Positions 342-59,695 of a stretch of 64,000 bases of DNA are shown piece after piece (the stretch's first letter is position 1; each line of letters opens with the position of its first letter). Origin of the DNA: Desulfitobacterium dichloroeliminans LMG P-21439 (GTDB lineage: Bacteria; Bacillota; Desulfitobacteriia; Desulfitobacteriales; Desulfitobacteriaceae); the NCBI RefSeq assembly GCF_000243135.2, contig NC_019903.1, positions 534,001 through 598,000 of the forward strand, given 5' to 3'. The position numbers were made by a program, and so were the translations under genes. The notes under the pieces were generated by a model. The model saw nothing but the letters and a program-made list of their open reading frames with translations, ran no database searches and was not told the origin of the DNA.

Positions 342-1283
342 TTGAAAGGTGAAATCACCATAGGAATACCTAGAGCTTTTTTATTCTTTAAATACCAATA
401 CCTTTGGCAAATTTTTTTTGCAGAATTAAACTGCCCGGTGATTATAAGCCCGGAAACAAACAAGAGAATATTGAAAGACGGCATTGATTCTTCCATCGAC
501 GAAAGCTGCCTTTCCGCGAAGATCTATATGGGCCATCTCTCCTACCTAAGAGGGAAAGCCGATTACATCTTGGTTCCTCGGATCGTCGGCTTTGGCAAAA
601 ATGAAGTCGTTTGTACCAAATTCAATGCTCTCTACGATATCGTCAAAAATACTTTTAAAGATGTAAACCTGCTCAGCTATAACGTAGATATGGCTAACCG
701 TGAAAGTGAATGGAAAGGCTTCATGAAGATGGGCAGGGAACTGGGCAAAAACCCTGTCCAGGTATTAAGGGCCTATCTTAAAGCCAAAGCAATCCAAGCC
801 AAGCAGGAACACCAGTTGACTGCTGAGCAGGAGAGCCTAATCCGGACAGAGGACAAGCTGAAGATCCTGATCATTTCCCATGATTATAATACCTACGACA
901 AGGTGGTGGGTTATCCTATTATCAAGTGCCTTAAAAGCTTGGACAGTGTGCCTATCTATGCCAATGCCGCCGACAAAAAGAAAACCTCCCTAAAGTCAAG
1001 GTTCATCTCAGACGCCCTGTACTGGACCTTCAACAAGGAGCTCATTGGTGCGATCCATCATTATCAGAAGGAAGTAGATGGGATAGTTTTTATTTCGACC
1101 TTCCCCTGCGGTCCTGATTCTCTGGTCAATGAATTGTGCCTGAGGAAAATTAAAGGAGTTCCCATGGCCAATATCATCGTGGATGAGCTGCAAGGAGAAG
1201 CGGGCTTACAAACAAGAATTGAAAGCTTTGTCGATATCATCAGGGAGAGGAAAAAAGCCGGGAGGGAAGCGCACATTGGCTAG
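342..1283 (+). CDS. DUF2229-type CoA dehydratase-activase related protein, N-terminal part
   Basis: 313 aa, TTG start. The N-terminus (ITIGIPRAFLFF..., then DESCLSAKIYMGHLSYL) is the DUF2229 pattern of the large 2-hydroxyacyl-CoA dehydratase/activase-related proteins of Firmicutes. Cysteines in the DESCLSAK and FPCGPDSL segments are candidate iron-sulphur ligands. In many clostridia and bacilli these modules are parts of one very long protein with an N-terminal activase; here they are three separate genes with 8-bp and 19-bp overlaps, so translation is probably coupled. The substrate is unknown for the family. The family call is firm; any enzymatic role is inference. Confidence 0.8.
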   Translation: MKGEITIGIPRAFLFFKYQYLWQIFFAELNCPVIISPETNKRILKDGIDSSIDESCLSAKIYMGHLSYLRGKADYILVPRIVGFGKNEVVCTKFNALYDIVKNTFKDVNLLSYNVDMANRESEWKGFMKMGRELGKNPVQVLRAYLKAKAIQAKQEHQLTAEQESLIRTEDKLKILIISHDYNTYDKVVGYPIIKCLKSLDSVPIYANAADKKKTSLKSRFISDALYWTFNKELIGAIHHYQKEVDGIVFISTFPCGPDSLVNELCLRKIKGVPMANIIVDELQGEAGLQTRIESFVDIIRERKKAGREAHIG

Positions 1284-2370
1284 CCAGGAAAAGATCATAA
1301 GCTTTCCTCATATGGGAAATTATCATATCGCCATCGAATTTCTAATCAGACATGTCTTAGAAAACATTCAGGTTCTAACCCCGCCCCCCATTACCAAAAA
1401 AACCCTGGAACTGGGAGCCAAGCACAGTCCGGATTTTGTGTGTGTGCCCTTTAAATATAACCTGGGCAACTATCTTGAAGCCCTTGATGGAGGAGCTAAT
1501 CTCTTGGTGCAGTCCGGCGGTGGCTGCCGATTTGGGTATTATGGTGAAATCCAGGAACAGATCTTAAGAGATCTGGGCTATGATTTTGAGTTCATTAGCA
1601 TTATCGACAACGAAAATGTCAATCCCTTGGCCTTTTTCAGCCGCTTTAAGCGGTTGAATCCCCAGCTGTCTTTTGCCCGATTCGCTTACTACTTTTACTT
1701 GACCTTTAAAATGATTGAGGCAATGGATACCATCGATGCCACTATTCGGGCCAACATTGGTTTTGCGGTCCAAGAAGGTAGCTTTGAAAAGTTGCAAAAG
1801 GAATTCCTCCAGAAGCTTCCCTCAGTGAATGGCTTCAGAAGTTTGGACAGGATCTATCGCCATTACCATGCTCTATTCCGCCAGCTGGAGGTCAATAAAC
1901 CTGCAAATCCCATCAGGGTCGGAATCGTCGGAGAGCTCTATACCCTCATGGAGCCTTTCAGTAGCTGTTTTATCGAAAAGGAACTGGCTAAAAAAGGCAT
2001 CCAAGTCACCCGGTTCATCACCGTATCCTATTTACTGCGTCATCATCCCAAATCAAGTGATTTGCTGAAGTGGGCGGGGAAATACCTAGAGTATGAAATC
2101 GGTGCCGATGGCACAGATAGTGTGGCCCGGGCGAAAATGCTGGCTGAAGCCGGGTATGATGGAGTCATCCATATCAAGCCTTTCGGGTGCACCCCAGAGG
2201 TCAACTCCATGCCCATGATGCAGAATATCAGCAATGATTATAAGATGCCGGTCCTGTACTTTAGCTTCGATGCCCAGACTTCGGAAACCGGTGTGCACAC
2301 AAGGCTAGAAGCGTTCCATGACATGCTGATGATGAGAAGGGAAGCGAACACATGGCAAAATGTTATTTAG
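1276..2370 (+). CDS. 2-hydroxyacyl-CoA dehydratase-like protein of the activase operon
   Basis: 364 aa when started at the TTG at 1276, which has GGAGGG 9 bases upstream and overlaps the preceding stop by 8 bp; the open frame itself reaches back to 1183 without a good ribosome site. The segments FVCVPFKYNLGNYLEAL, SGGGCRFGYYGEIQ and IKPFGCTPEVNSMPMMQ carry conserved cysteines like the (R)-2-hydroxyacyl-CoA dehydratase D-subunit superfamily, which binds a [4Fe-4S] cluster. It is the probable partner of the activase directly downstream. Which reaction, if any, it performs cannot be read from the sequence. Confidence 0.78.
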   Translation: MASQEKIISFPHMGNYHIAIEFLIRHVLENIQVLTPPPITKKTLELGAKHSPDFVCVPFKYNLGNYLEALDGGANLLVQSGGGCRFGYYGEIQEQILRDLGYDFEFISIIDNENVNPLAFFSRFKRLNPQLSFARFAYYFYLTFKMIEAMDTIDATIRANIGFAVQEGSFEKLQKEFLQKLPSVNGFRSLDRIYRHYHALFRQLEVNKPANPIRVGIVGELYTLMEPFSSCFIEKELAKKGIQVTRFITVSYLLRHHPKSSDLLKWAGKYLEYEIGADGTDSVARAKMLAEAGYDGVIHIKPFGCTPEVNSMPMMQNISNDYKMPVLYFSFDAQTSETGVHTRLEAFHDMLMMRREANTWQNVI

Positions 2371-3359
2371 GAGTGGACAGTGGCTCCATTTCTACAAAGG
2401 GTGTAATCGTTGATCAAAACAATAAGATATTGGCTGAGAAGTACCTATGGACGGAAGGGAATCCGGTGGAGGCTGTGAAAGAAGTAATCGGGGGTCTCCA
2501 GACTCAAATCGAGGGCAAGGATATCCGGGTTAAAGCCGTGGGCACCACCGGATCGGCTCGACGCTTGGTCGGTGCTTTACTCAATGCTCAAGTGGTTAAA
2601 AATGAAATTACCGCCCATGCTGTGGGAACCTTATCCGTCTATCCCGAGGTCCGGACTATTTTTGAAATCGGCGGTCAGGATTCTAAGATTATTCTTGTTG
2701 AAGACGGTATCGTGGTGGATTATGCCATGAATACCTTATGTGCCGCCGGAACAGGTTCCTTCCTGTCCTCTCAAGCCAAGCGTCTGGGGCTGGAAGTTGA
2801 GAAATTTGGCGAGTTGGCTTTGCGCTCCCAGAATCCCACCAAAATTGCGGCCCGCTGTACGGTTTTTGCTGAGTCCGATATGGTGCACAAGGCTCAGATC
2901 GGGCATAAGAAAGAGGATATTGTAGCTGGGTTGTGCAAAGCGGTCGTGGCCAATTACCTGAACAATGTGGGCAAGGGCAAACACACCAAAGCCCCGATTG
3001 TTTTCCAAGGGGGAGTCAGTAAAAATGTCGGGGTGATTAAAGCCTTTGAGGAAGCAACGGGAGAGACGATCCATGTGGATCAGCATGCACACTTAATGGG
3101 AGCCTTAGGGGTCGCCTTGCTTGCTAGAAGCTCCGGCCAAGAGCAGGATTTTAACTTCAGTATGACCGAGATGCAATTTGATACTCGTGGGGTAGAATGT
3201 CAGGGGTGCCCCAATAACTGTGAGGTCATCTGTGTTTATAGGAATGACGAGTTGATTGATGCTTGGGGCAACAAATGCGATAAGGGAGCGGTACGAGGCA
3301 ATAAGGTACCGGTGGGCAAGGAAGCGCCGGTTGTTAAAGATGATGTCATGGTGTCTTGA
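2352..3359 (+). CDS. BadF/BadG/BcrA/BcrD-type acyl-CoA dehydratase activase
   Basis: 335 aa. An actin-fold (ASKHA) ATPase of the HgdC type: phosphate-1 motif GVDSGSISTKG (7-17), EIGGQDSK (105-112), NTLCAAGTGSF (127-137) and FQGGVSKN. Cys130 and Cys169 are 39 residues apart, the same spacing as the cluster ligands that bridge the HgdC dimer. Such proteins use ATP to push one low-potential electron into a dehydratase partner. A cysteine-rich tail (ECQGCPNNCEVIC) follows the ATPase core, which short HgdC proteins lack. The gene overlaps the dehydratase-like gene by 19 bp, and the operon ends at the hairpin at 3468-3497. Confidence 0.88.
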   Translation: MAKCYLGVDSGSISTKGVIVDQNNKILAEKYLWTEGNPVEAVKEVIGGLQTQIEGKDIRVKAVGTTGSARRLVGALLNAQVVKNEITAHAVGTLSVYPEVRTIFEIGGQDSKIILVEDGIVVDYAMNTLCAAGTGSFLSSQAKRLGLEVEKFGELALRSQNPTKIAARCTVFAESDMVHKAQIGHKKEDIVAGLCKAVVANYLNNVGKGKHTKAPIVFQGGVSKNVGVIKAFEEATGETIHVDQHAHLMGALGVALLARSSGQEQDFNFSMTEMQFDTRGVECQGCPNNCEVICVYRNDELIDAWGNKCDKGAVRGNKVPVGKEAPVVKDDVMVS

Positions 3360-3467
3360 TAGGGGAACAAATTCTTTGTTTTCTTCGATGTCCAATGGGA
3401 TCCTCACAGATGAGATTAATAAAGCATGGGCAGGCATGACGACAAGGCAGTACAAAACTTTAAAGTG

Positions 3468-3497
3468 AGAAAAACGAGACCTCAGTCTCGTTTTTCT
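3468..3497 (+). terminator. Terminator of the dehydratase/activase operon
   Basis: A 13-bp perfect stem (AGAAAAACGAGAC at 3468-3480 with its complement at 3485-3497) with a CTCA loop ends in T-rich sequence. It lies between the plus-strand operon and the convergent DUF2922 gene and may work in both directions. Confidence 0.8.
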
Positions 3498-3507
3498 TTT
3501 GCCCATC

Positions 3508-3747
3508 CTAGTTCAGAGGGGGGTCATAAAGGTCTTCCGTCGAGGTGCCTACGATCAGCGCATCTCGTTTGGAGCCTAGCTCGCCACTGGAAGTCATGAA
3601 AATATTCTTCGCGAGGATCGTGTTCATCACAGCTTCCACCTCAGTTTTCGTCAGGTCTTCCTTGGGATTGGCCACGGTGATAGTGACGCTTTTCCCACTG
3701 GTCGTGGTAAACGCCAACTGAAGCACTTTCGTCGTAGTGATTGCCAT
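3508..3747 (-). CDS. DUF2922 domain protein
   Basis: 79 aa from the ATG at 3747, which has GGGAGGTGAT just upstream; a GTG at 3756 lies inside that ribosome site and is unlikely. Sequence MAITTTKVLQLAFTT...SGKSVTITVANPKEDL is typical of DUF2922, a small family in spore-forming Firmicutes with no established function. It sits 37 bp downstream of the DUF1659 gene on the same strand, the usual pairing for these two families, so they are probably co-transcribed. Confidence 0.75.
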   Translation of the reverse strand: MAITTTKVLQLAFTTTSGKSVTITVANPKEDLTKTEVEAVMNTILAKNIFMTSSGELGSKRDALIVGTSTEDLYDPPLN

Positions 3748-3784
3748 TGGTATCACCTCCCTAAGGTTTAATACAAGTGGAGGA

Positions 3785-4009
3785 TTACTCCTCGACTAAG
3801 TCAAAGTTTTTCCTAAGGATTGTCTGGATCACAGGATGAATGCTCAAGCTGAATAAAGCGGCCGCTACATCATAGATGTCTTGATCTAAGGCGTCAGCTT
3901 TAATGTCATTTAGGCTCTTCTGCTTGATCACCGGCGCACCGGCCGGAGTTTCCCCAGCTTGATATTTTATAACCACAGTGGATCCCAAAGGGGTAGCATT
4001 AACTGCCAT
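3785..4009 (-). CDS. DUF1659 domain protein
   Basis: 74 aa; GAGAGGAAG ribosome site ahead of ATG. The pattern MAVNATPLGSTVVIKYQ...SLNDIKADALDQDIYDVAAALFSL matches DUF1659, a short family of unknown function usually next to a DUF2922 gene, as here. No signal peptide or membrane segment. Confidence 0.75.
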   Translation of the reverse strand: MAVNATPLGSTVVIKYQAGETPAGAPVIKQKSLNDIKADALDQDIYDVAAALFSLSIHPVIQTILRKNFDLVEE

Positions 4010-4145
4010 ATCGTCACTTCCTCTCCCATTGATTGACGGTGGCCTTAGATAGCCTGTCTGTCTATCATATGTACGGGCAGGGGGCTAAGGTTCCATAAAA
4101 ACGGGGTCAGAAAAATATAGGGAGGTTTAGAGACGGCGGTTCGGT

Positions 4146-4193
4146 ATAGCCTGTCCCAAATACGAAGGCGCCTTCGTATTTGGGACAGGCTAT
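4146..4193. repeat. Perfect 48-bp palindrome, REP-like
   Basis: Two 24-base arms meet without a spacer; the core reads CCCAAATACGAAGGC and its complement. There is no T-run on either side, so it is a poor Rho-independent terminator. A second, shorter copy of the same core occurs at 21477-21518, which suggests a dispersed repeat family. Confidence 0.8.
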
Positions 4194-4272
4194 TATAAAC
4201 GAGCTTTCACCCTCGTGGACATGATTCCATATAATGAAAATAAATTCACCAATAAAAGGGTGTGAAGTAAGT

Positions 4273-5184
4273 ATGGGTGAATTACTGACAGAACGAACGC
4301 CACTCGTTATCGCGTCTGAAATCAATACCATTAAATATCAAACTGGAAAAATCCTTTTAACCAGTGCCATAGAGGTTGGCCGCCGCTTGAAGGAGGCCAA
4401 GGGCCTGCTTCCCCATGGGGAATGGCTGAATTGGTTGGAGGAATCCGTAAATTATACAGAAAGAACGGCCCAGACGCTGCTACGCATCTTCGATGCCTAT
4501 GGGAGCCAACAGCTCGCTTCTGCCGACGCGGCCTCTCTGAACGCTCAGGACCCCAACGCGGATTCGCTGAACACTGCCTCACGCAGAGTAGTGCCATCAG
4601 CCCTTACAGCCCAAGCTCAAGCACAGCCTATCCTAAACTATACCCAAGCGCTTATCCTCTTGGGAGTGCCGGAAGAAGAGCGGGCTCAGTTCATTGCTGA
4701 GCTGGACCTAGAAAGCATGACCACCCGTGAACTGCAAAAAACAGTTCAGGAGCGATGCCAAGTGATTGAGGAACGGGATCTGGCCGTGCGGGAAAAAGGA
4801 GATCTCTCAATGACACTGGAGGATCAGAAGGAGCAGATCGACAGGATGGCCAAGGAGCTGGCAAGTCTGAAGTCGAAGGCTCAGGAATTGAGCAAGTCTC
4901 ATGCAGAAGCCATGGCTAAAGCTGAGAGGCTGAGCCTAGAATTGAAATCTCAGAAGCAGAATACCTCGGCCAAGGCCCTTACAAGAATGACCAACAACCT
5001 TACAGCAGCCTATCACAAGGCCAAAGCTAATCGGATTGCTTTTTTATATGAGAGTATGGATCGGAATTTCAAGGACCTGCTTAGTGAGCTGAAGGAGTTC
5101 GAGGACAAGGAACCGGACACCTATGAAGTGTATAAGAAGAAGATCGTTGATTTCTTGACAGACGGGTTAAAGGGGCAGATGTAA
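4273..5184 (+). CDS. DUF3102 domain protein with coiled coil
   Basis: 303 aa from ATG 4273, preceded by GGGTGTGAAG; an upstream ATG at 4234 has no ribosome site. The N-terminal about 90 residues (EINTIKYQTG..., EVGRRLKEAKGLLPHGEWLNWL) match DUF3102, often found on mobile elements of Firmicutes. Residues of about 170-250 form a long charged coiled coil. DUF3102 proteins have been suggested to bind DNA through a helix-turn-helix-like fold, but no function is proven. Its place at the edge of the accessory island, beside a palindromic repeat, fits a mobile-element gene. Confidence 0.7.
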   Translation: MGELLTERTPLVIASEINTIKYQTGKILLTSAIEVGRRLKEAKGLLPHGEWLNWLEESVNYTERTAQTLLRIFDAYGSQQLASADAASLNAQDPNADSLNTASRRVVPSALTAQAQAQPILNYTQALILLGVPEEERAQFIAELDLESMTTRELQKTVQERCQVIEERDLAVREKGDLSMTLEDQKEQIDRMAKELASLKSKAQELSKSHAEAMAKAERLSLELKSQKQNTSAKALTRMTNNLTAAYHKAKANRIAFLYESMDRNFKDLLSELKEFEDKEPDTYEVYKKKIVDFLTDGLKGQM

Positions 5185-5563
5185 AGCCGGCAGGAGGCAG
5201 GATTAATGCTAGTCTTCAAGTGAGCGGGGCCATGGGCGTCGCTTGTTTGGCTTGCCCTTGTAAAATGCTGATCGATCAGGATGGCGGTGATGCAAGTAGG
5301 TAGGGGCTAGGAGAGTCTAAAATAATTGGCATTTTAAAGGAAATAGATGTAAGTTGTCGAAATCAATAATTTAACAGAGAAGGAAATTAAACGGAGGAAG
5401 TCGTTCGCTTTATTACAACACGCGCAGTGAGATAACTGCGGTCAACTTTTATGTCATTTGGCTAAGCACTAGGAGATGATGAAAAACAATGAAGAGGCTG
5501 ACTTGGAATTTACAAAGAGAAATGTAATTGATCCATTTCCAGCCTGAAAGCGGGTGATTATAA
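5185..5563. other. Intergenic stretch upstream of the Wadjet operon
   Basis: No gene supported in 379 bp. The jetA promoter is expected here, but I see no unambiguous -35/-10 pair and no strong hairpin. Confidence 0.4.
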
Positions 5564-6880
5564 TTGAGCAACCCTTTAAGTGGAAGAAACAGTTATCGGA
5601 CCGCATCCATCGTAGAACTCGCCGTTAGTAATGATCTTCCCGATATCAGCAGCGCTAAAAACGATTATGATTTGGCGCATAAAGATATTGTAATGGTTAG
5701 AAATATTGAAAAACACCTTAAGCTGTTCGAAATCTTTAAGTTGAGAAACTCCCAGATGATTGTTTTAATTCTAGCTGGCGCCAAAACTTTGGCCAGCGAA
5801 GCCGGAAGGTTTTCTCTGGAAGAAGCCCATAAGTATCTGGGTTATATGAGCAAAAGAACCCGGGATAAGGTGCTGAGAGAATTGCAGGAAAAAGGCTGGA
5901 TAGTATTTGACGGATTTGATTACGAAGTCCCCGGTAAGGTGCGCTCTTTTTTATCTTCCATGTTTTTAGCCTTTGCGAAAGAAAATCTTAGTATGGAAGA
6001 ACAGATCAAAACCACCGTTATGCTGGCAGAATTTGTCGATGAATTCAATATGGATGAAGAACAAACTGAGTCCATTAAAAACATGGGATTTCGGGAATTG
6101 GCGGTTTGGCAAGGATATCTGAAGCGTGTCATTCAGAAAAAGTCGCGGCGGGAAATTTTAGAAATCGGCAAACAGACACAGGGAATAATCAAGGTGATCA
6201 AAGAAACGCAGAGGACGCTTAACAGTAACCGTAAGCTCTTTTCCCGGACTAAATATGATGAATTTTTCGATGTAACTAGCAGTATTTTGGATTTAACGAC
6301 GCAAATCTTAGCCATGGCCATTCAATTCCAGCGGGAAAGCCAAAAAGGTCTGGGTGAATTTATTTCCCCCGAGATGATTGAGGTGGCGCTTCATGAGGCA
6401 AGCAAAGAGATATTAGCTGGATTTGCCGAGAAGAACTTTTCGGCCCCCAAACAGGTCTATCAACTAAGAGAAGAAGTGCTGGGAAGCAGAAGCAAGGCTT
6501 TTTTTGAAAATGAGAAAGAAGAAATTATAGCCACACCTGCCCCTGAACCGGTTGATATTGTGGAAGAAGAAATGATTGTGGATCGGACGCAAAGCCCCAT
6601 GGAGCTTTTCTATCAGGAACTTGTTCTGAAAATGAAAGGGAAAGACGATGCCCCTATGGATGAACTGCTTTTTCAAGATCTTAAACAATTCGGTCAGGCC
6701 TTGTATAAAACAGGTCAGTTGCTTAAGTTAACGGGAGAATTAAGAAATCAGGGTCTTGAGGTTCAGGGAAAAGAAGTCTTTGAATTGATCGTCAACGATT
6801 CCTATAAAGAATTGAAGGAAGGTCCGGTGGAACTGGTCACAGATTGCTTGACGAGGAGGGTTAGTCATGGATCAGATTGA
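5564..6880 (+). CDS. jetA: Wadjet anti-plasmid protein JetA (kleisin-like)
   Basis: 438 aa, TTG start with GGGTGATTATAA ahead. First gene of a four-gene operon in the order kleisin-like, KITE-like, SMC-like, TOPRIM protein, the JetABCD arrangement of Wadjet. The mostly helical, charged protein has a winged-helix-like region near residues 85-130 (SLEEAHKYLGYMSKRTRDKV) and a C-terminal helical block. In Wadjet, JetA links the JetC ATPase heads and works in sensing circular plasmid DNA before JetD cleaves it. The assignment comes mainly from gene order and size; my guess is the type III branch, but the subtype should be treated as open. Confidence 0.72.
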   Translation: MSNPLSGRNSYRTASIVELAVSNDLPDISSAKNDYDLAHKDIVMVRNIEKHLKLFEIFKLRNSQMIVLILAGAKTLASEAGRFSLEEAHKYLGYMSKRTRDKVLRELQEKGWIVFDGFDYEVPGKVRSFLSSMFLAFAKENLSMEEQIKTTVMLAEFVDEFNMDEEQTESIKNMGFRELAVWQGYLKRVIQKKSRREILEIGKQTQGIIKVIKETQRTLNSNRKLFSRTKYDEFFDVTSSILDLTTQILAMAIQFQRESQKGLGEFISPEMIEVALHEASKEILAGFAEKNFSAPKQVYQLREEVLGSRSKAFFENEKEEIIATPAPEPVDIVEEEMIVDRTQSPMELFYQELVLKMKGKDDAPMDELLFQDLKQFGQALYKTGQLLKLTGELRNQGLEVQGKEVFELIVNDSYKELKEGPVELVTDCLTRRVSHGSD

Positions 6881-7508
6881 GGGAATCAAGATCAATCCTG
6901 AAGCGCAAAAATTATGCTCTATGTTTCATTACGGCTGGGTTTCTAAAAAGGAAACCGGCCCAATTGAACGGGATCTTAAGTTGTTTCGGGATGTGCAAAC
7001 CTATCTTTCGCTGATGGGCTATGAATTGCTGAACCCACCTGGAACTGAATGGTATGTGATCCGTTTAAAGAAAGAATACGATTCAGCTTCCTTTGATTAT
7101 TTCCTGAAAAAGGTCAAAGGGATAGACCGGAGGCATATGGCCCTGCTGACGATTATTTATGCGAATCTTGTTCTGCCCAAGGAGCTTCGCCATGTGGATC
7201 CGGAAACTGAATTGAGTCTGACAGTTGACGAGCTTGTTTATAACTATGGCGCCAAGTTTCAGCAGGGAAAACAGAACCCGCGCAAAACTATAGAAACCTT
7301 GCTGGCGCCCTTGAAAAAACATCATTACATTCTTTTTGAAAAAGGCAAGGCCAAGATCACTGTCGGACCAGCGATGTATATGCTCCACAGCGATCTTCTT
7401 ATGGACATCTGCGATTATGTCATTCAGGGATTGACGGCTAATTTAAGTGCAATCCCTAAAATTGATGAAGAGGAAACGACTGAGAGTGAGGAAGATGGCA
7501 ATGATTAA
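6867..7508 (+). CDS. jetB: Wadjet protein JetB (MukE/KITE-like)
   Basis: 213 aa, ATG with GAGGAGGGTTAGTC ahead; overlaps jetA by 14 bp and jetC by 8 bp, so the operon is translationally coupled. Size and the two winged-helix-like blocks (residues of about 85-180) fit the small KITE subunit that binds the kleisin in MukBEF-like complexes. The C-terminus is acidic. It has no enzymatic motif. The identification depends on its position between jetA and the SMC-like jetC. Confidence 0.7.
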   Translation: MDQIEGIKINPEAQKLCSMFHYGWVSKKETGPIERDLKLFRDVQTYLSLMGYELLNPPGTEWYVIRLKKEYDSASFDYFLKKVKGIDRRHMALLTIIYANLVLPKELRHVDPETELSLTVDELVYNYGAKFQQGKQNPRKTIETLLAPLKKHHYILFEKGKAKITVGPAMYMLHSDLLMDICDYVIQGLTANLSAIPKIDEEETTESEEDGND

Positions 7509-10380
7509 AGATTTCTCAACCGTATATTGGGGATACCTACCGTCCACCAAAGAACCCTATAAGGTTCATGAGAAAGTCAATGCTTTCATCGGTCCGTCCG
7601 GTCATGGGAAGACAACTATCTGGGACGGACTGCGGCTGATGTTGGGGGCAAGTCATTATGAGAGCAAACGGACATTTTCCTTTTATGTTCATAAAAAAAG
7701 CAACTGGGCGGTGGTCCGGGTCGCCTTTGATAACAAACCTGTGAATGGTGTCCGCCCCTTTGAAAATGTTCGTAAATTTGCGGACGAAGTAACCGCTTGT
7801 TGCAGGATTTATAAAAACGAGCAGAGTTCCTGGGCTAGGGACTATTATTTATTCGATGGTGAATTTCATGATCTCAAAGATCTTCATTTTAATACCAAAG
7901 CATATAGCGAAGCGGCTTTAAGTGTGGGGGAGTATCTGGGTGTTTTGGAGCAATGTCTGGGCATAACCAAAGAATTCCGCAATTTAATGGCTATGAGTCC
8001 CGATACAGTAAGGGAAGTGGTTAACTCTTCACCTCATACCCTGTTCCATTTGATCTTTGACCTCAAAGGCGCGAAAGGTTATAAAAAACGTTATGATGAG
8101 AGCAAGCAGCGCTTGAATGAACAAGAGATCGCCATTGAACGCGCGGCGGAAGAAATGGGGCAAGCTCGGATTCGCTTTGAAGAAACCAAAATAAAAGCCC
8201 AGAAATTTCGGCAATATAAGGTCAAAGAAAAGGAAGTCGAAAGTACTATAGTAAAGCTGAAAAAACTGGAGTACGCCGAATGCCAGGAGATGCTAAAATC
8301 TACGGAAGAAGAAATGACCTCCGTTGAGCAACAAGGACGGATAGAAGCGGATAAGGTTAATGAACTTACGGTAAAAATCACCGCCAAAGAAACAGAAATT
8401 GTGCATTTGGAAACGGAGTACAATAGGTTATATGAGGAAGAGGAAAGGGCCAATCAGGAGAAAACGGAAATTACAAGTACTAAAAGATTTAAGGATAACG
8501 AACTTAAAACACTGGCTCAAGAAATCGAGAATTTGCAAAAAATAGAACCGCAAAATATTGAAGATTTAAGACAACTCAAAAGTATTCTCACTGATGATTT
8601 GGATCAGAAGAAGCAGGATTATGTTCAAGCGAAGACTGCGCTTAATGAGCTGAAGCAAAAGCTTCTTGATCTGGAGAATAATCGTCTTCCTTATAAAGAC
8701 GAGGCCAAAAGATTCAGAAATGCTCTTGAAGAAAACCATGTTTCCTATCTTATGCTTGCCGACGCGATTAGTGTTAAGCCGGAAATGAGCAGATGGCAGG
8801 AAGCAATTGAAGCATATATCGGCAATAATCGTTACCGGGTGATTGTGGAACAGGGACAATACCTTCAGGCCAAGAAATTACAAGAAAAGGCCAGATATGG
8901 AGCTAGGGTATCCTTGCCTAAAACCGGAAAAGAACTGCTGGCGTGTGAGGGTATAAACTATCCCAGCTTGCGCTCGGCTATCAATATAAGTCACCGGGAA
9001 AAAGTTGAGGGATATCTGGACAAGTTGAACAATGTATATCTGGTGGAAACGGTCGAAGAAGGTCATGCCCTTCAGGCCCGGGGAATTGAGAGCATTACGC
9101 TGGGCGGCTTGCTTCAAGACAATGACGGGGCTATTCATTTGAAATACCATACGCTCTGCTGCGGTAAACTAGCTCTCCAAGAAGAGAAAAAACGAACTAA
9201 AGAAATGCTGCCGCAAAAGGAATGCCTGGTTCAGAAACTCCAAGCCGCTGTTCAGTTGCTCCAAAAAGATGTGAACGAAACCGAAGAGACGATTAAAATG
9301 CAAGAGCGATTAGCAAAACTATCTGATCTGGAACAAAACTACAGTTCCTTACTTGAGGAAACTGGAAAGCTATCCAACTTACTCAACGAAGCAGAAAGAC
9401 AGAAAAAAGCAGCAAAGGATAAAAAAGAAGGAGTCCGGCGCCTACAACGAAGTGCAGGAGAGGACCAAAAAGAATTTATTGTAAACAAAGAACAAGCTGA
9501 ACAAAACATGACCATTTTCTCGAGAAAATATTCAGATTTACAGAAAAAACAAGAAGGGCTTGGGTTAGATTTTAAACTGGCAATAGAAGAAGTAAAAGTG
9601 CTGGGGTTAACGGAAGATGATATTGAATTTATCTCTTATGAAATGCAAGGCAGCGCTTTTTCAGATTCTCAAGGAAATCGGACTACAGCAAAGGAAATGA
9701 ACAATAAATTAAACGCCCTTCTTGCCGAAAAGGAAAAGCTTTATGACTCTTCGGTCAATGAAGAAGTTGCTCGTTTAGTCGAGGCGCAAGAGGGGCAGGT
9801 GGAACTGCTGGCCCAAAATCTGCGCAGCTTAAAAGAGGACAGAACGGAATTGGAGAGAACCTGTGATGATTTACTGTTTCAATTCCGGGAGCATATCAAG
9901 GAAATTATGAAGGATTATATCTCTGAATTCGAGAATTTTGCGGATTTGCTCAAAGCGTCAGCCAAAGGGAAATTGGTAGAAGTCACACCGGATCCGGAGA
10001 CGTGGGAAATAAAGTTGTATATCGGCTATGACGGCAAGGAACCGGTCCCAGTGGACGGACCACATCTCAGTTCCGGTCAAAAGGCCAGCACCAGTCTCAT
10101 GATTTTGCTGGCAGCTTTGGGCGACAATAAAAACGGCAAAACAACCCCGATTATGTTTTTGGATGAACCTAAGGCGAGGGTAGACGATGATCGCGGCAAT
10201 GAAATCGGGCAACTTCTGCAAGTTACGGATATTCAGTATTTTATTACCCACCAACAGGGAGAATCCTTGAAGAGCATCGATTGGATCGACCATGCTTTTA
10301 CCTGCAGTGCATGTCGGTCCGATCATGATTTTGCTAATCCGTTAATCCTGAAAAAACGGGCTAGGAGAAGTTTTGCATGA
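7501..10380 (+). CDS. jetC: Wadjet SMC-like ATPase JetC
   Basis: 959 aa from ATG 7501, the start best placed after GAGG; ATG 7495 is possible. Walker A GPSGHGKT at residues 31-38, ABC signature LSSGQK at 856-861, Walker B IMFLDEP with D888-E889. Between the heads are two long coiled coils separated by a hinge-like globular region (roughly 420-570). This is the motor of the MukBEF-like JetABC complex, which extrudes DNA loops and detects small circles. At about 960 residues it is shorter than the JetC of type I systems (about 1100). It overlaps jetB by 8 bp and jetD by 4 bp. Confidence 0.88.
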   Translation: MIKDFSTVYWGYLPSTKEPYKVHEKVNAFIGPSGHGKTTIWDGLRLMLGASHYESKRTFSFYVHKKSNWAVVRVAFDNKPVNGVRPFENVRKFADEVTACCRIYKNEQSSWARDYYLFDGEFHDLKDLHFNTKAYSEAALSVGEYLGVLEQCLGITKEFRNLMAMSPDTVREVVNSSPHTLFHLIFDLKGAKGYKKRYDESKQRLNEQEIAIERAAEEMGQARIRFEETKIKAQKFRQYKVKEKEVESTIVKLKKLEYAECQEMLKSTEEEMTSVEQQGRIEADKVNELTVKITAKETEIVHLETEYNRLYEEEERANQEKTEITSTKRFKDNELKTLAQEIENLQKIEPQNIEDLRQLKSILTDDLDQKKQDYVQAKTALNELKQKLLDLENNRLPYKDEAKRFRNALEENHVSYLMLADAISVKPEMSRWQEAIEAYIGNNRYRVIVEQGQYLQAKKLQEKARYGARVSLPKTGKELLACEGINYPSLRSAINISHREKVEGYLDKLNNVYLVETVEEGHALQARGIESITLGGLLQDNDGAIHLKYHTLCCGKLALQEEKKRTKEMLPQKECLVQKLQAAVQLLQKDVNETEETIKMQERLAKLSDLEQNYSSLLEETGKLSNLLNEAERQKKAAKDKKEGVRRLQRSAGEDQKEFIVNKEQAEQNMTIFSRKYSDLQKKQEGLGLDFKLAIEEVKVLGLTEDDIEFISYEMQGSAFSDSQGNRTTAKEMNNKLNALLAEKEKLYDSSVNEEVARLVEAQEGQVELLAQNLRSLKEDRTELERTCDDLLFQFREHIKEIMKDYISEFENFADLLKASAKGKLVEVTPDPETWEIKLYIGYDGKEPVPVDGPHLSSGQKASTSLMILLAALGDNKNGKTTPIMFLDEPKARVDDDRGNEIGQLLQVTDIQYFITHQQGESLKSIDWIDHAFTCSACRSDHDFANPLILKKRARRSFA

Positions 10381-11663
10381 GCGGAATCAAGAAAACAGAC
10401 TATGAAAGAAGTCCGGAAAAAAGATATCCGAGCTATAAAATTGAATCCGGACAGAATTTCAGAGGAATTCCGTCCACCCTGAATAAACCCCACGGTCTTC
10501 AGGATTTGATGACCCAAATAATCAGGGAAGTCAGCAAAGGAGCCAAACGTTATACTCCATTGGCTGGAAAGCTTGCAAAATCCTATTCTTCCAGCGATAT
10601 TGCCAAAGCAATTGATATCCTAGTTATTGACGGTATTTTGCAAACGAAAAGCAAAAACAAGAAGCCCAATAAAAGCGATTTGGAATGGGACTTGCAAATC
10701 ATCTCTCTTGATCCCCGGGCACAGGAGACCTTTTCCCAGACTGAAGAACCGTTGGTAGAGAAATATCAGCATTTGAAAAACCAAATAGATCAGCTTATTA
10801 CGGAGACCAAGCCTTCCGCACTCAAAACCCATCTGCAGCGATGCCTCAATGAAAAAGTCTTGACGAGTCCGAATAGGGATGTGGTTTGTGGGACCAAGGC
10901 CTGGGTTAAATTTCGATCTGTTGCGTTGACTTTGGCCTATGCCATTGTTTTATTAGAACAAGAAAAAAGAGAACCTCTACGGGTTCTATCAGAAAGAATC
11001 TGGGGTAAAAGCAAGATACTTGACCGGTATAAAAAAGATATCGCGCGGGTTGCGGGGCAATCCCTTAATCGCTTAAACCTAACGAGCATACCTGAAGTAA
11101 CATTTGTTTATGGAGATGTCTCGTACCGCTTTCAGGGATACTTATCATCGTTGATGGCGGGAAGTCCCTATGTGCTAACAGAAGGAACAATAAAAGGGCT
11201 GGAAATAAAGCAAGTCGGCGCTGAAAAAATGCTTATTGTGGAAAATTATGCGGTGTTTCAGGAAGTCTTTGTTCGCAAATATCAGGAAAGGCCCGATGTG
11301 CTGCTTCTGTGGGGTGCCGGTTACTTATCCTCCCCCAAGAAACGGCTAATTGATAAGATTCTTCAAGCCAAGCCAATCCCCGTATATATATGGAGCGATC
11401 TGGATGCGGACGGGCTGGGGTTAACATTGGATATTATCAAAAAAGTGCGGAAGTATGATATTGAGGTTAAGCCTGTTCTGATGTCAGCCTGTGAACTGGA
11501 TTTGGCCAAAGGGGATTATGTCGCCTCCAACCATCATAATTTGGATGACCCGGAGTTGGCGGAAGTTTTCCCGGATGTGATCGAGAGAATACGTTTGCAA
11601 AACGTGATGGAGCAGGAAGAACTTATTCTCCATTATGAGCGGGTGAAGGACAAGCTCCCTTAG
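10377..11663 (+). CDS. jetD: Wadjet nuclease JetD (TOPRIM, DUF2220-like)
   Basis: 428 aa; the ATG overlaps the jetC stop (ATGA). The N-terminal half has a winged-helix-like segment (residues about 45-90). The C-terminal half has a TOPRIM fold: an acidic residue at E289 (IVEN) and the metal-binding D341-L-D343-A-D345-G motif in WSDLDADG, like topoisomerase VI A and other DUF2220 proteins. In Wadjet this subunit cuts plasmid DNA once the SMC complex stalls. All catalytic acids I can recognise are present, and the whole operon has no frameshift, so the system should be functional. Confidence 0.85.
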   Translation: MSGIKKTDYERSPEKRYPSYKIESGQNFRGIPSTLNKPHGLQDLMTQIIREVSKGAKRYTPLAGKLAKSYSSSDIAKAIDILVIDGILQTKSKNKKPNKSDLEWDLQIISLDPRAQETFSQTEEPLVEKYQHLKNQIDQLITETKPSALKTHLQRCLNEKVLTSPNRDVVCGTKAWVKFRSVALTLAYAIVLLEQEKREPLRVLSERIWGKSKILDRYKKDIARVAGQSLNRLNLTSIPEVTFVYGDVSYRFQGYLSSLMAGSPYVLTEGTIKGLEIKQVGAEKMLIVENYAVFQEVFVRKYQERPDVLLLWGAGYLSSPKKRLIDKILQAKPIPVYIWSDLDADGLGLTLDIIKKVRKYDIEVKPVLMSACELDLAKGDYVASNHHNLDDPELAEVFPDVIERIRLQNVMEQEELILHYERVKDKLP

Positions 11664-11942: not shown

Positions 11943-14900
11943 ATGGAATTCTCAAAGAAAATACAAGAATTGCGGAATAGAGCTCAAGAATCACAAGCTG
12001 CAAATAAAATCATTGACATGTTGATACAATTGAAATTAAAGAATGATAGTACAACTTCTTACCGATGGATTTGGGAACTCATTCAAAATGCAAAGGATGT
12101 TGTTAACTCCAGAGGAAAAGTTGACATTTTTATTAACTTTGACGAAAGCAACAAATTGATTGAATTCAAACATAATGGCAAGCTATTCTCAACAGAGAAT
12201 ATTGTTTTCCTGATAGAGCAAGTTTCTACAAAAGATCGCACAATAACTGATGAAAAGAACAAGAGGACTACAGGAAAATTTGGAACTGGGTTCTTAACTA
12301 CGCATTTGCTATCAGAAGAAGTAAGGGTATCTGGATATTTGCAGGATGTTGGTGAATCCCCATGTTCTTTTAGTGTTGTTTTAGACCGATCCGGTACGAA
12401 TAAACAATCAATAATATATGCGATACAAGAAAGTTGTTTTCAGTTAGATAAAAGCACTACCTTAATTGATAATGCTAAAAAAATAAATGAAAACGATTTT
12501 AATACTTGTTTTACTTACGTTTTGAATGAATCGGGAGTGTTAACCGCAAAAAAAGGGCTGGAAAACCTACTTATTTCTGCTCCATATGTATTTGCTTTTG
12601 TTCCCGAAATAAGTTCAATAATAGTCACAAGCGGCCAATATGTTCAAAAAATTAGCCGGGAAGAGATAATTGAAACCAATCTCAGAAATGCGAAGGCAAC
12701 AAGAACCACGATCACAACAGAGGGCAAAAATAAAGATAGATATATTTTTGTTTTGGGAACGAATGATTTATCTATCGCTGTGGAAGTTGAAGCACATGAA
12801 AAATATAATTTCATAGCAAAATACGATTCTCAGCTACCAAGAATATTTTGTGACTTTCCACTTTTGGGAACGAATGATTTTTCATTTCCGGTAGTAGTAA
12901 ACAGTTCACTGTTCAATCCAACAGAACCTCGAAATGGAATTCATCTAACGAATATAGAACATGAACATACAACGGAAAACAAGCAAAAGTTGGTGGAAGC
13001 TTGTAAGCTCTATATTGAGATGTTGGACTATTTTCTGGAAAAAGATTATGAAGGCATTTACAACATTGTAAAAATTCCTGTGCAGCCTGATAAAGATTGG
13101 ATATCAAAAGAATGGTTTGAGCAAGAAGTAATCGATTCATTAAAATCCCGCATTAAAGAAATCCCACTCGTGTGTACGCAGAGTGGTGAGAAAAAAACTC
13201 TGTTTGATGACTGGGGCAACCCCTGCGTACTTATTCCAAAAGATGCAGATAAAACTGTAAGGGACAAAGTGTGGGCACTATCAAGCAAAATCATTCCTCA
13301 TATGATTACAAAACGTGAAGAATTAGAGTGCTGGTACAATTCTTTATGGGAGGAGTGTCGCACCTATAGTATAGTCGACTTAATTGAACGAGTAGAAACG
13401 TTCGACAACATAGATGAGTTGTCGAAAAATGTTATAAATGATGTAAGCGATTGGCTAAATGAATTATTGGCGCTATTCTACACAAAAGAAAATGCTTTTC
13501 AAAACTGTTTTTCTAGAAACCCATGTATTGTACCAAATCAACATGGTAAATTTTGCACTATAGATGCAATTGCACTTGATTGCGATATTGATGAAATCTA
13601 CAAAACAATTTCAGAGATTATTGAGCTCGATTTCAAAAGCAAATTATTGGATAGCAGTATTAAATATGAATTCTTGCCTATTGTTAAGAATTTTACATTA
13701 GAAGATGTTTTTTCAGAAATTGAAAAGAAGTTACATACTCCCAATCCGAAAGCAGAGGATTTTTATAAAAGAATTATTTGCTTGCAAGCTGAACAAAATG
13801 AAGAACAAGATGATTTTTTGAACCTCTTTAATAAAGATTCTTGGAAAAGAAATAAAGTATCAAAACATTCAAAGGAGATTCTTAAGGCAGCATTAAAATT
13901 TTGGAGAGAGAAAATAAGCAAGCAGATAGGATCGTATGAATGCGTTGAAAACTTTACTTCTCGAAGTTGTTTTTCTAATGAACAAAAGGCAGTTACTTGG
14001 TTGTCAAGGTTCATTCAAATATTAGTTAAATATGAGCAAGAAAATTTACTTGATAGAATCGCTATATTGCCTGATCAATATGGTAGTTTTAAGAAGTGTG
14101 CAGAGTTGTCTCTTGATTCAGGCGAAATTGAAGAAATTCTTAAAGATGCATGTAAATATGCCGGATATGATGTGCGTGAAACATTGTTATTAAAAGACGT
14201 TTATTTGAAGCTACCTAAAAATAGAACTGTTTATTTAGAAGATATTTCCGAGAAGATCACCAAGTATGTGAAGGAGAACAAAAACAATATAGGGCGGAAC
14301 AATTCCGAGGAGAAAGAGGTTTTTCAAAAAACATATCTTTGGCTTAGAGAGAATTTGGCCAATGAAACAGTCAAAAATTGTTTTAAAGAATTATTAACTA
14401 ATCTACATTGGTTTTATAACGATAATGATATCGCCGAAAATATGTTCAAAGTGGATGAATATAACGACATGTTAAAAAAATATGGTGTTTCCGGAATGCA
14501 AGAATTAGAAAGGATATTGTCTCGTTCGGCCATTGAATGTAATTCAAGAGAAGCGGTGGAAATCTCGAAGGAACTTCTTGCGCAATGGGGAATAGCAACA
14601 GAAGATGAGTTAAGTAGAGCATTATCTAATAATGTACTCGGCGCAGATTTTATACATAACTCTAAACCTGATTTTGGAATATTTAACTATGTAAAAGAAA
14701 TTCTCGCACGTTCGAAAAATAATGTTATCGAATATTTAAGTAAACAAGCTGAGTACGATGTTTCAGAATGCATTGAAATCAGTAAAACGATTTTTATTGT
14801 CAAAAAGCATGATATTCAAATTTACATAATTGCGCGCCCATCTGATTATGGACAAATAATTTTATATTATGATTCTGAGTTGGATCTTCTTGATTACGAG

Positions 14901-15023
14901 AAAGATTGTGAATTATGGGTTGAAGATGGGAAAAGCAATCCACAAAAAATTACATTTGGCAAAATATTAAAGCTAACTGGCGTTAACAAAATTCTATTAA
15001 GGAGCATAAGAGAGAATGGTTGA
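11943..15023 (+). CDS. Large Hsp90/sacsin-like GHKL ATPase, probable defence protein
   Basis: 1026 aa, ATG with GGGGG ahead. The N-terminal about 120 residues form a GHKL ATP-binding domain: N-box ELIQNAKD at 45-52, a degenerate G1 (FKHNG at 75-79, with His in place of the usual Asp) and G2 GKFGTGF at 111-117. This is the sacsin N-terminal / Hsp90-like type seen in several bacterial defence proteins. The remaining about 850 residues are helical, Asn/Lys/Glu-rich and not recognisable to me. Codon use is markedly more AT-rich than the Wadjet genes next door, a sign of separate transfer. It overlaps the next gene by 8 bp, so the pair is one unit. Not a named system that I can identify. Confidence 0.72.
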   Translation: MEFSKKIQELRNRAQESQAANKIIDMLIQLKLKNDSTTSYRWIWELIQNAKDVVNSRGKVDIFINFDESNKLIEFKHNGKLFSTENIVFLIEQVSTKDRTITDEKNKRTTGKFGTGFLTTHLLSEEVRVSGYLQDVGESPCSFSVVLDRSGTNKQSIIYAIQESCFQLDKSTTLIDNAKKINENDFNTCFTYVLNESGVLTAKKGLENLLISAPYVFAFVPEISSIIVTSGQYVQKISREEIIETNLRNAKATRTTITTEGKNKDRYIFVLGTNDLSIAVEVEAHEKYNFIAKYDSQLPRIFCDFPLLGTNDFSFPVVVNSSLFNPTEPRNGIHLTNIEHEHTTENKQKLVEACKLYIEMLDYFLEKDYEGIYNIVKIPVQPDKDWISKEWFEQEVIDSLKSRIKEIPLVCTQSGEKKTLFDDWGNPCVLIPKDADKTVRDKVWALSSKIIPHMITKREELECWYNSLWEECRTYSIVDLIERVETFDNIDELSKNVINDVSDWLNELLALFYTKENAFQNCFSRNPCIVPNQHGKFCTIDAIALDCDIDEIYKTISEIIELDFKSKLLDSSIKYEFLPIVKNFTLEDVFSEIEKKLHTPNPKAEDFYKRIICLQAEQNEEQDDFLNLFNKDSWKRNKVSKHSKEILKAALKFWREKISKQIGSYECVENFTSRSCFSNEQKAVTWLSRFIQILVKYEQENLLDRIAILPDQYGSFKKCAELSLDSGEIEEILKDACKYAGYDVRETLLLKDVYLKLPKNRTVYLEDISEKITKYVKENKNNIGRNNSEEKEVFQKTYLWLRENLANETVKNCFKELLTNLHWFYNDNDIAENMFKVDEYNDMLKKYGVSGMQELERILSRSAIECNSREAVEISKELLAQWGIATEDELSRALSNNVLGADFIHNSKPDFGIFNYVKEILARSKNNVIEYLSKQAEYDVSECIEISKTIFIVKKHDIQIYIIARPSDYGQIILYYDSELDLLDYEKDCELWVEDGKSNPQKITFGKILKLTGVNKILLRSIRENG

Positions 15024-15918
15024 TATTACCGAAGTGCAACAATTGTTGAGGGAGCCAACTTCAAAAAACCTTATTTGCAGAGAATTAGAATTCAGACCAC
15101 AAAATTTAGCCTTGTTTATTGCTGCGCTCTCAAATACGACAGATGAATATGGGTATATCGTAATCGGAGCAAGCAAAAATGCAGATAAGTATTCCGTGAA
15201 TGGAATAAGTCCTGAATTTAAGATAGATGAACCCATCAAGCGGGCACTAGGCTTATTGTCTGAGCAGCCGAGAATAGACTTCGGGAGTCTTACAATTGAT
15301 GGCAAAAATATTTATGCAATCAAAGTTAAACAGGTTGCAAGCGACATTTACTTCAAACCTACGCAGAATACAGAGTCACAAGCCGATTTATTTATTCGTG
15401 ATCTTTACTTGGCTTGTATTAAGCTTCAAGCGCGCAAGCTCTATGTGAATGTTACAGAAGATGAGCGTAATGACTTTATTGTTGATTTACTTGAAACAAG
15501 CGGACACTGCATAAAAGATCAATCTCGACGAGGAAGTTCTGCCACTGGAAAATTGTCTGGCGAAGTTGATATTTTTGTTGAAAAAAACGGTATGCCTTTT
15601 ACTCTTATCGAAGCTCTCAATTTAGATAGCTTAAACACTAGTTACATTGATACTCATCTTGACAAAATATATTCTTATGACACAGCAGGAAATGCATTTA
15701 ATGTATGCTTGTCATATGTCAAAGTGAAAGATTTTGGTTCTTTTTGGGATAAGTATTGCGACCATGCTGGAAAGCATGCCTATCCAGTAATGCTTATCTC
15801 ATCAAATATAAATGCGGATAAGGATTATTCATACTCCGACATCAGGTTTATGACAACAACCCATAACCGATCAGGTAAAACCACATGCCTCTACCATATA
15901 TGTGTAAAGATACATTAA
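15016..15918 (+). CDS. AlbA_2 (Schlafen-type) DNA-binding protein with nuclease-like C-terminus
   Basis: 300 aa, overlapping the GHKL ATPase gene by 8 bp. Residues of about 10-115 match AlbA_2: E-x-E-F near 23-26, FIAALSNT and YGYIVIGASKN. The C-terminal half has GEVDIFV (D185) followed by FTLIEAL (E199), the spacing of a PD-(D/E)xK nuclease core, although the usual Lys after the Glu is replaced (EAL). The domain is therefore either a degenerate nuclease or a related non-catalytic fold. With the ATPase it probably forms a sensor/effector pair. The C-terminus is clean, so I take the gene as intact. Confidence 0.65.
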   Translation: MVDITEVQQLLREPTSKNLICRELEFRPQNLALFIAALSNTTDEYGYIVIGASKNADKYSVNGISPEFKIDEPIKRALGLLSEQPRIDFGSLTIDGKNIYAIKVKQVASDIYFKPTQNTESQADLFIRDLYLACIKLQARKLYVNVTEDERNDFIVDLLETSGHCIKDQSRRGSSATGKLSGEVDIFVEKNGMPFTLIEALNLDSLNTSYIDTHLDKIYSYDTAGNAFNVCLSYVKVKDFGSFWDKYCDHAGKHAYPVMLISSNINADKDYSYSDIRFMTTTHNRSGKTTCLYHICVKIH

Positions 15919-59518: not shown

Positions 59519-59695
59519 GGCCTATTGGAATGATACTTACGCGCTCCCCCTTTTGCTAGTCAAGCTCAGTATTATTTGATATACTCATCTTGGGCAGTAT
59601 CATTTAGAACTGCACCTTTTACTTGGAATCCAAGTTATTCAATTATTACTGCCTGTATCCATGTGGAATAGGACAGAGGGATGAAACAGTTTTTT

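What the first reader, a model, noticed from the sequence alone, without database searches (positions are those of the whole stretch)
5564..11663. Complete Wadjet-type jetABCD operon with unusual size profile
Four overlapping genes (14, 8 and 4 bp) with kleisin-like, KITE-like, SMC-like (959 aa) and TOPRIM (WSDLDADG) products. All recognisable catalytic motifs are intact. JetC is shorter than in type I systems and the JetA/JetB sequences look distant, pointing to a less studied branch, perhaps type III.
Basis: partly seen in the sequence, partly recalled or inferred. Interest (0 to 1): 0.6.

Follow-up and report, generated by a model that had tools for sequence, protein, structure and literature searches.

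The report
Unclassified Wadjet branch with swappable effector
The four genes look like a rare, untyped relative of the bacterial machine that finds and cuts small foreign DNA circles, and in two close relatives the same motor genes carry a protein kinase where the DNA-cutting part should be, which suggests its "weapon" can be exchanged.

Summary
jetA (5564-6880), jetB (6867-7508), jetC (7501-10380) and jetD (10377-11663) overlap by 14, 8 and 4 bases, and the JetC ATPase and JetD TOPRIM motifs are intact. The type III guess is wrong. A true type I and a true type III locus, used as controls, score hundreds of bits on PADLOC's own-type models. Here JetA and JetB hit nothing, JetC reaches 50 bits and JetD 69 bits, both best on type I models. 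This is a deep, rare, untyped Wadjet-like branch: only 5 intact loci turned up in the genomes searched.

The most interesting part lies outside the window. Relatives fall into two sets. Three intact loci (window, G104, G460) carry a TOPRIM JetD. Two loci in different genera (G013, G003), whose JetA/B/C are 68-86% identical to the window's, carry a 618-aa protein that keeps the JetD N-terminal wHTH-CAP half (about 29% identity) but ends in a Hanks-type Ser/Thr kinase (Pfam E 2e-35) and has no TOPRIM. I found no report of this in the open literature I could search.

Most likely the window operon cuts small circular DNA; its motor appears able to drive a kinase effector instead. Function is inferred throughout.

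The parts
5564..6880 (+). jetA, 438 aa, putative kleisin
   Evidence: Position and size; 74-77% identical in G104/G013/G003 and 30% in G460. No curated family matches at E<=0.001. The only link to another JetA is a weak profile match (E 1.4e-4, residues 80-288) to JetA of a cousin system L019.
6867..7508 (+). jetB, 213 aa, putative KITE subunit (DUF4194/JetB-like)
   Evidence: Pfam DUF4194 E 0.0031, below its cut-off; 25% identity, E 3e-10, to JetB of the cousin locus L019.
7501..10380 (+). jetC, 959 aa, SMC-like ATPase
   Evidence: PADLOC JetC1 E 3.5e-14; Pfam SMC_N 44 bits, over cut-off; PDB JetC E 4.2e-5 over query residues 405-452 = chain 458-505.
7591..7614 (+). JetC Walker A GPSGHGKT (residues 31-38, K37)
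   Evidence: Invariant in the four aligned JetC.
10066..10083 (+). JetC ABC signature LSSGQK (residues 856-861)
   Evidence: Invariant in the four aligned JetC.
10156..10170 (+). JetC Walker B end FLDEP (residues 886-890, D888/E889)
   Evidence: Invariant in the four aligned JetC.
10377..11663 (+). jetD, 428 aa, wHTH + CAP + TOPRIM nuclease
   Evidence: Pfam JetD_C 8e-13, over cut-off; PADLOC JetD1 1.1e-19; model matches topoisomerase VI-A and the Wadjet nuclease MksG 8b7f.
10437..10766 (+). JetD N-terminal winged-helix region (residues 21-130)
   Evidence: VIA-align Z about 10-11 to ArsR/MarR-type winged helices; shared with the kinase-type JetD.
10806..11096 (+). JetD CAP-like helical region (residues 144-240)
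   Evidence: Aligned with the CAP of topoisomerase VI-A (9o0g from residue 144); shared with the kinase-type JetD.
11091..11660 (+). JetD TOPRIM domain (residues 239-428), replaced by a kinase domain in relatives G013 and G003
   Evidence: Z 15.6, rmsd 2.9 over 175 residues to 1d3y; replacement in L017 and L018.
11241..11243 (+). JetD E289, putative metal-binding/catalytic Glu
   Evidence: Invariant in six JetD; aligned with the topoisomerase VI-A/Spo11 acidic residue.
11391..11414 (+). JetD WSDLDADG motif (residues 339-346, D341/D343)
   Evidence: D341, D343 and G346 invariant in six JetD; aligned with the TOPRIM DxD of topoisomerase VI-A.

Best explanation
The locus encodes a Wadjet-like SMC complex of a deep, untyped branch. 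By analogy with characterised Wadjet, JetC dimers held by the putative kleisin JetA and KITE JetB would extrude DNA using ATP. When a small circular molecule has been fully extruded, the two motors meet, and the JetD dimer changes from a closed to an open form and cuts the DNA with its TOPRIM active site (E289, D341, D343). Linear DNA and the chromosome are spared. Shown here: gene order, overlaps, motifs, TOPRIM/CAP/wHTH fold prediction, conservation, and a patchy island-like occurrence. Inferred: complex assembly, extrusion, plasmid cleavage. In two relatives the same JetABC (68-86% identical) is paired with a JetD whose TOPRIM half is a Ser/Thr kinase. I therefore infer that JetABC is the circular-DNA sensor, that the wHTH-CAP half of JetD is the docking and switch part, and that the C-terminal half is an exchangeable effector (nuclease here; kinase, probably growth-arresting or signalling, in the relatives).
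For: JetD: JetD_C and TOP6A/Spo11 TOPRIM over Pfam cut-off; the model matches topoisomerase VI-A (Z 15.6, 2.9 A over 175 residues) and MksG 8b7f (Foldseek E 2.3e-7); E289/D341/D343 invariant. JetC: PADLOC JetC1, Pfam SMC_N and PDB JetC matches. Operon recurs in G104, G460, G013 and G003. Effector exchange: L017 and L018 kinase Pfam E 2.3e-35 and 2.2e-36; nucleotide loop, Lys392, HRD 491-493 and DFG intact in both copies; N-terminal 245 aa aligned to JetD at 27-30% with the same order of predicted secondary-structure elements; purifying selection, pS 0.63 against pN 0.18; no TOPRIM partner in cis. Tree: the two kinase loci group on JetC (91/87), with TOPRIM-bearing G460 outside. Mechanism of characterised Wadjet: review PMC10586767.
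Against: No experiment. JetA has no detectable family and its kleisin role rests on position. JetB similarity to DUF4194 is below the curated cut-off. Only five intact loci were found, so the profiles are shallow and the kinase-type model is poor (pLDDT 54). Nothing tested here shows that the window operon acts on plasmids rather than phages. The kinase could regulate the complex instead of being an effector.
Confidence: 0.78

Rival explanations
1. It is a Wadjet type III (or II) system.
For: Some JetC3/JetD3 profile similarity; JetC differs in length from type I.
Against: JetC1 and JetD1 score higher, and JetA/JetB hit no type III model. A true type III locus in G013 scores 257-298 bits for A/B/D and has order D-A-B-C. 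Type II/III complexes are discussed as having an enlarged SMC periphery (PMC12647877), the opposite of a 959-aa JetC.
Confidence: 0.04
2. It is a housekeeping MksBEF-type condensin for chromosome folding, with an accessory nuclease.
For: SMC/kleisin/KITE-like set; MksBEF is a relative of Wadjet (PMC10586767).
Against: Found in only 5 of 82 genomes of the class and 3 of 398 sampled from the phylum; synteny with congeners ends just upstream at 3363; lies beside a Tiamat gene, a Schlafen-like gene and a transposase; carries an intact TOPRIM jetD; decayed copies exist (G056).
Confidence: 0.06
3. The window system is primarily anti-phage (abortive), with JetD cutting host or phage DNA, not an anti-plasmid system.
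For: Kinase-type relatives suggest that JetABC triggers a cell-level response; the kinase's best PADLOC hits are phage-defence kinases (mad6, PD-T4-6, Stk2).
Against: JetD is close to the MksG/JetD nucleases of anti-plasmid Wadjet; no direct evidence.
Confidence: 0.12
4. In G013 and G003 the kinase regulates the complex and the nuclease is supplied in trans, so there is no true effector exchange.
For: Both genomes carry other TOPRIM JetD genes elsewhere.
Against: In G013 the two TOPRIM hits are a separate complete type III Wadjet and a gene next to ksgA that looks like RNase M5. The kinase sits in the jetD position and keeps the JetD N-terminal half in both genera.
Confidence: 0.2

Closest known systems
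Wadjet type I (JetABCD / MksBEFG / EptABCD)
   Same: Gene order A-B-C-D; SMC ATPase; DUF4194-like JetB; CAP-TOPRIM JetD with the same acidic residues; best HMM matches for JetC and JetD.
   Different: JetA and JetB not recognised by type I models; JetC 959 aa instead of about 1,100; an N-terminal winged helix modelled in JetD ahead of the CAP; scores 50-69 bits against 475-1,320 for a true type I locus.
Wadjet type III
   Same: JetABC plus TOPRIM JetD.
   Different: Type III control has order D-A-B-C and its own JetA3/JetB3 families, none of which match here.
Lamassu
   Same: SMC-like sensor combined with different effector domains in different loci; JetC also hits LmuB weakly (E 1.4e-10), as SMC-like proteins do.
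   Different: No LmuA/LmuC partner; the effector here is joined to a JetD-type wHTH-CAP half. In the review, effector variety is given as a contrast to Wadjet (PMC10586767).
Topoisomerase VI subunit A / Spo11
   Same: CAP plus TOPRIM fold and DxD motif of JetD.
   Different: JetD belongs to a jetABC operon and has an extra N-terminal winged helix; the review says type I JetD lacks the catalytic tyrosine, which I did not test here.
Defence Ser/Thr kinases (Stk2, PD-T4-6, MADS mad6)
   Same: Kinase domain of the G013/G003 JetD.
   Different: Here fused to a JetD wHTH-CAP half and encoded as the fourth gene of a jetABC operon.

Membership tests
Wadjet (JetABCD) | Four-gene operon of kleisin, KITE, SMC and TOPRIM nuclease | tested here: inconclusive
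   Operon and TOPRIM/SMC parts met. KITE only below cut-off; kleisin without any family match.
Wadjet (JetABCD) | JetD with CAP and TOPRIM domains and conserved acidic residues | tested here: met
   Pfam JetD_C over cut-off; fold match to topoisomerase VI-A and MksG; E289/D341/D343 invariant.
Wadjet (JetABCD) | SMC ATPase JetC with Walker A, signature and Walker B | tested here: met
   Motifs invariant; JetC1 and SMC_N matches.
Wadjet (JetABCD) | Restricts small circular plasmids | not testable with these tools
   Needs a transformation assay.
Wadjet type I | All four proteins match type I families | tested here: not met
   JetA and JetB match none, JetC/JetD weakly; the control locus L022 matches all four strongly.
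Wadjet type III | JetA3, JetB3, JetC3 and JetD3 families, D-A-B-C order | tested here: not met
   control L055.
Wadjet type II | JetA2, JetB2, JetC2 and JetD2 families | tested here: not met
   Only JetC2 E 0.0041 and JetD2 1.4e-6; none for JetA/JetB.
Lamassu | LmuB with LmuA effector and LmuC | tested here: not met
   No LmuA or LmuC match among the four genes; TOPRIM JetD instead.
Kinase-effector variant of this branch (G013, G003) | JetABC with a wHTH-CAP protein ending in a kinase, no TOPRIM | tested here: not met
   The window carries TOPRIM; the kinase variant is met in L017 and L018.

The most novel reading that the evidence does not exclude
JetABC of this branch is an effector-neutral detector of circular DNA. 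The JetD wHTH-CAP half is an adaptor that can carry either a TOPRIM nuclease (window, G104, G460) or a Hanks-type Ser/Thr kinase (G013, G003). The kinase form turns completed loop extrusion into a phosphorylation signal, probably growth arrest or abortive defence, instead of DNA cleavage.
Probability: 0.55. Interest if true: 0.78.

Novelty: new variant of a known kind. Interest (0 to 1): 0.6.

Why it matters
Wadjet is described as a sensor (JetABC) with a fixed nuclease (JetD), and effector variety is cited as a trait of Lamassu, not Wadjet (PMC10586767). A branch whose near-identical motors carry either a nuclease or a kinase would separate sensing from killing in an SMC complex. It would offer a natural test of the 'extrusion completed, then effector activated' model: swap the D genes between window and G013 JetABC and read out cutting or phosphorylation. 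It would also mean that current HMM sets miss a Wadjet branch, since JetA and JetB are invisible to PADLOC.

Tried and rejected
Type III assignment: rejected with type I and type III control loci scored on the same HMM library. Assembly artefact for the kinase swap: rejected, because it occurs in two genera, once inside a single-contig chromosome (G013), with purifying selection. TOPRIM partner elsewhere in G013: the hits are a separate type III Wadjet and an RNase M5-like gene. Separate origins of the kinase swap: not needed, the two kinase loci are sisters on JetC, though the branch is short and the concatenated support is only 69/66. Structure of the kinase-type JetD: model poor (pLDDT 54), its fold search meaningless, so the kinase rests on sequence. 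JetA/JetB profile comparison with type I JetA/JetB: no signal. No relatives in viral contigs or phage records; among plasmids only a distant truncated jetC fragment. One early script read gapped copies of the window proteins; it was redone with ungapped sequences, and those numbers are used. Literature searches for a kinase-bearing Wadjet found none, but only open-licence full texts could be searched.

Full report
What is there. JetC has Walker A with K37, an LSSGQ signature and FLDEP Walker B, all invariant in the aligned relatives. JetD has E289, D341 and D343, invariant in six diverse JetD proteins. The AlphaFold model of JetD (mean pLDDT 65) gives a winged helix (residues 21-130, Z about 10-11), a CAP-like region, and a TOPRIM that matches topoisomerase VI-A at Z 15.6, 2.9 A over 175 residues; the C. 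glutamicum Wadjet nuclease MksG (8b7f) is among the top Foldseek matches, E 2.3e-7.

Type. PADLOC gives JetC1 50 bits and JetD1 69 bits as best hits and nothing Wadjet-like for JetA or JetB; Pfam gives JetD_C over its cut-off and DUF4194 below it. As controls on the same library, a type I locus in genome G169 scores 787/321/1320/475 bits (JetA1/B1/C1/D1) and a type III locus in G013 scores 257/258/298 bits (JetA3/B3/D3) with order D-A-B-C. So the window operon is neither typical type I nor type III; it is a deep branch, somewhat nearer type I. The local match to the PDB JetC starts 53 residues earlier in the window protein (405 against 458), consistent with shorter coiled-coil arms.

Relatives. 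The branch is rare: JetB profile searches hit 5 of 82 genomes of the class and 3 of 398 sampled from the phylum; it is absent from the phages, plasmids and viral contigs searched, apart from a distant truncated plasmid fragment. Intact members: window, G104 (another order; A/B/C/D 76/81/71/66%), G460 (split over two contigs; A 30%, C and D 39%), G013 and G003. G056 keeps jetB but only fragments of jetC and jetD; G033 keeps jetD fragments. G003 also holds a further cousin operon, L019, with JetC 934 aa and JetD 475 aa, 23-25% identical.

The effector swap. In G013 and G003 the fourth gene encodes a 618-aa protein. Its first 245 or so residues align to the wHTH-CAP half of JetD at 27-30% identity, and the predicted secondary-structure elements follow in the same order. 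The rest is a Ser/Thr kinase (Pfam Pkinase E 2.3e-35 and 2.2e-36) with the nucleotide loop at 370, Lys392, HRD 491-493 and DFG at 514-516 in both copies, and no TOPRIM motif. JetA/B/C of these loci are as close to the window (G013: 77/86/72%) as the window is to G104 (76/81/71%), yet the D N-terminal halves are only 28-29% identical, less than window against the much more distant G460 (36%). So the whole D gene, not only its tail, has a different history from jetABC, or it diverged unusually fast. On JetC the two kinase loci are sisters (91/87) and TOPRIM-bearing G460 lies outside; this favours TOPRIM as the ancestral state and one exchange, though the inner branch is short and the concatenated data support it only at 69/66. 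The kinase genes are under purifying selection (pS 0.63, pN 0.18). G013 has no TOPRIM gene in cis; its other hits are an unrelated type III Wadjet and an RNase M5-like gene.

Mechanism. Characterised Wadjet is a JetABC motor that is thought to extrude DNA and, on small circles, to activate the JetD nuclease (PMC10586767). The window operon has the parts for this, so circular-DNA cleavage is the best reading (inferred, not shown). The swap suggests that the wHTH-CAP half is the adaptor and switch, and that the C-terminal domain is replaceable; the kinase form would signal or arrest growth instead of cutting (inference). The closest kinase models in PADLOC are defence kinases mad6, PD-T4-6 and Stk2.

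Context. Synteny with congeners covers about 549-3363 and stops there. Downstream lie a Tiamat TmtA gene (E 7e-134), a Schlafen/AlbA-like gene and an IS1380 transposase at 32-37% GC, against about 42% for the jet genes. This is a defence-island setting and fits poorly with a housekeeping condensin.

Limits. No experiment; JetA is a kleisin by position only; few members; poor model for the kinase protein; only open-licence papers could be searched for earlier reports of a kinase-type Wadjet.

Noticed in passing
11943-15023: Sacsin-type ATPase matching Tiamat TmtA (PADLOC E 7.4e-134), followed by a Schlafen/AlbA-like gene (15016-15918) and an IS1380 transposase (16511-17773, - strand); GC falls to about 33% here.
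   Followed up: partly
3363-5563: Synteny with two congeners stops at about 3363, 2.2 kb before jetA; a DUF3102 gene (4234-5184) lies between.
   Followed up: partly
L015 9886-11103: In G104 the TOPRIM-type operon is followed by a SIR2 defence gene (PADLOC E 1.7e-135); it is not overlapping and may be a neighbour only.
   Followed up: no
L033 2046-8474: Next to the G460 operon: a 1,472-aa protein, then a 557-aa and a 122-aa protein that look like Cas4-Cas1 and Cas2 of a CRISPR system (by eye).
   Followed up: no
L019 8173-14334: G003 carries a second, 22-29% identical short-JetC (934 aa) JetABCD operon, another untyped Wadjet-like branch.
   Followed up: partly
L055 1441-9109 and on: G013 has a type III Wadjet (D-A-B-C) preceded by a 1,365-aa protein with an LmuA-like N-terminus.
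   Followed up: no
L023 / L002 9026-11972: G056 holds a decayed copy: jetB intact, jetC cut after about 128 residues, jetD in fragments, followed by what look like a cytosine methylase fragment and a Vsr-like nuclease.
   Followed up: partly
L035 8998-10461: A Variovorax plasmid carries a jetC-like N-terminal fragment (21.5% identity) next to an IS1071-family transposase gene.
   Followed up: no
JetD Tyr188 (window 10938-10940): A CAP-domain tyrosine conserved in this branch, also in the kinase-type proteins that lack TOPRIM, but not in other JetD; probably structural, not a topoisomerase-like catalytic residue.
   Followed up: no
59591-59680: pan cis-regulatory RNA motif (RF01749, E 3.2e-9).
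   Followed up: no
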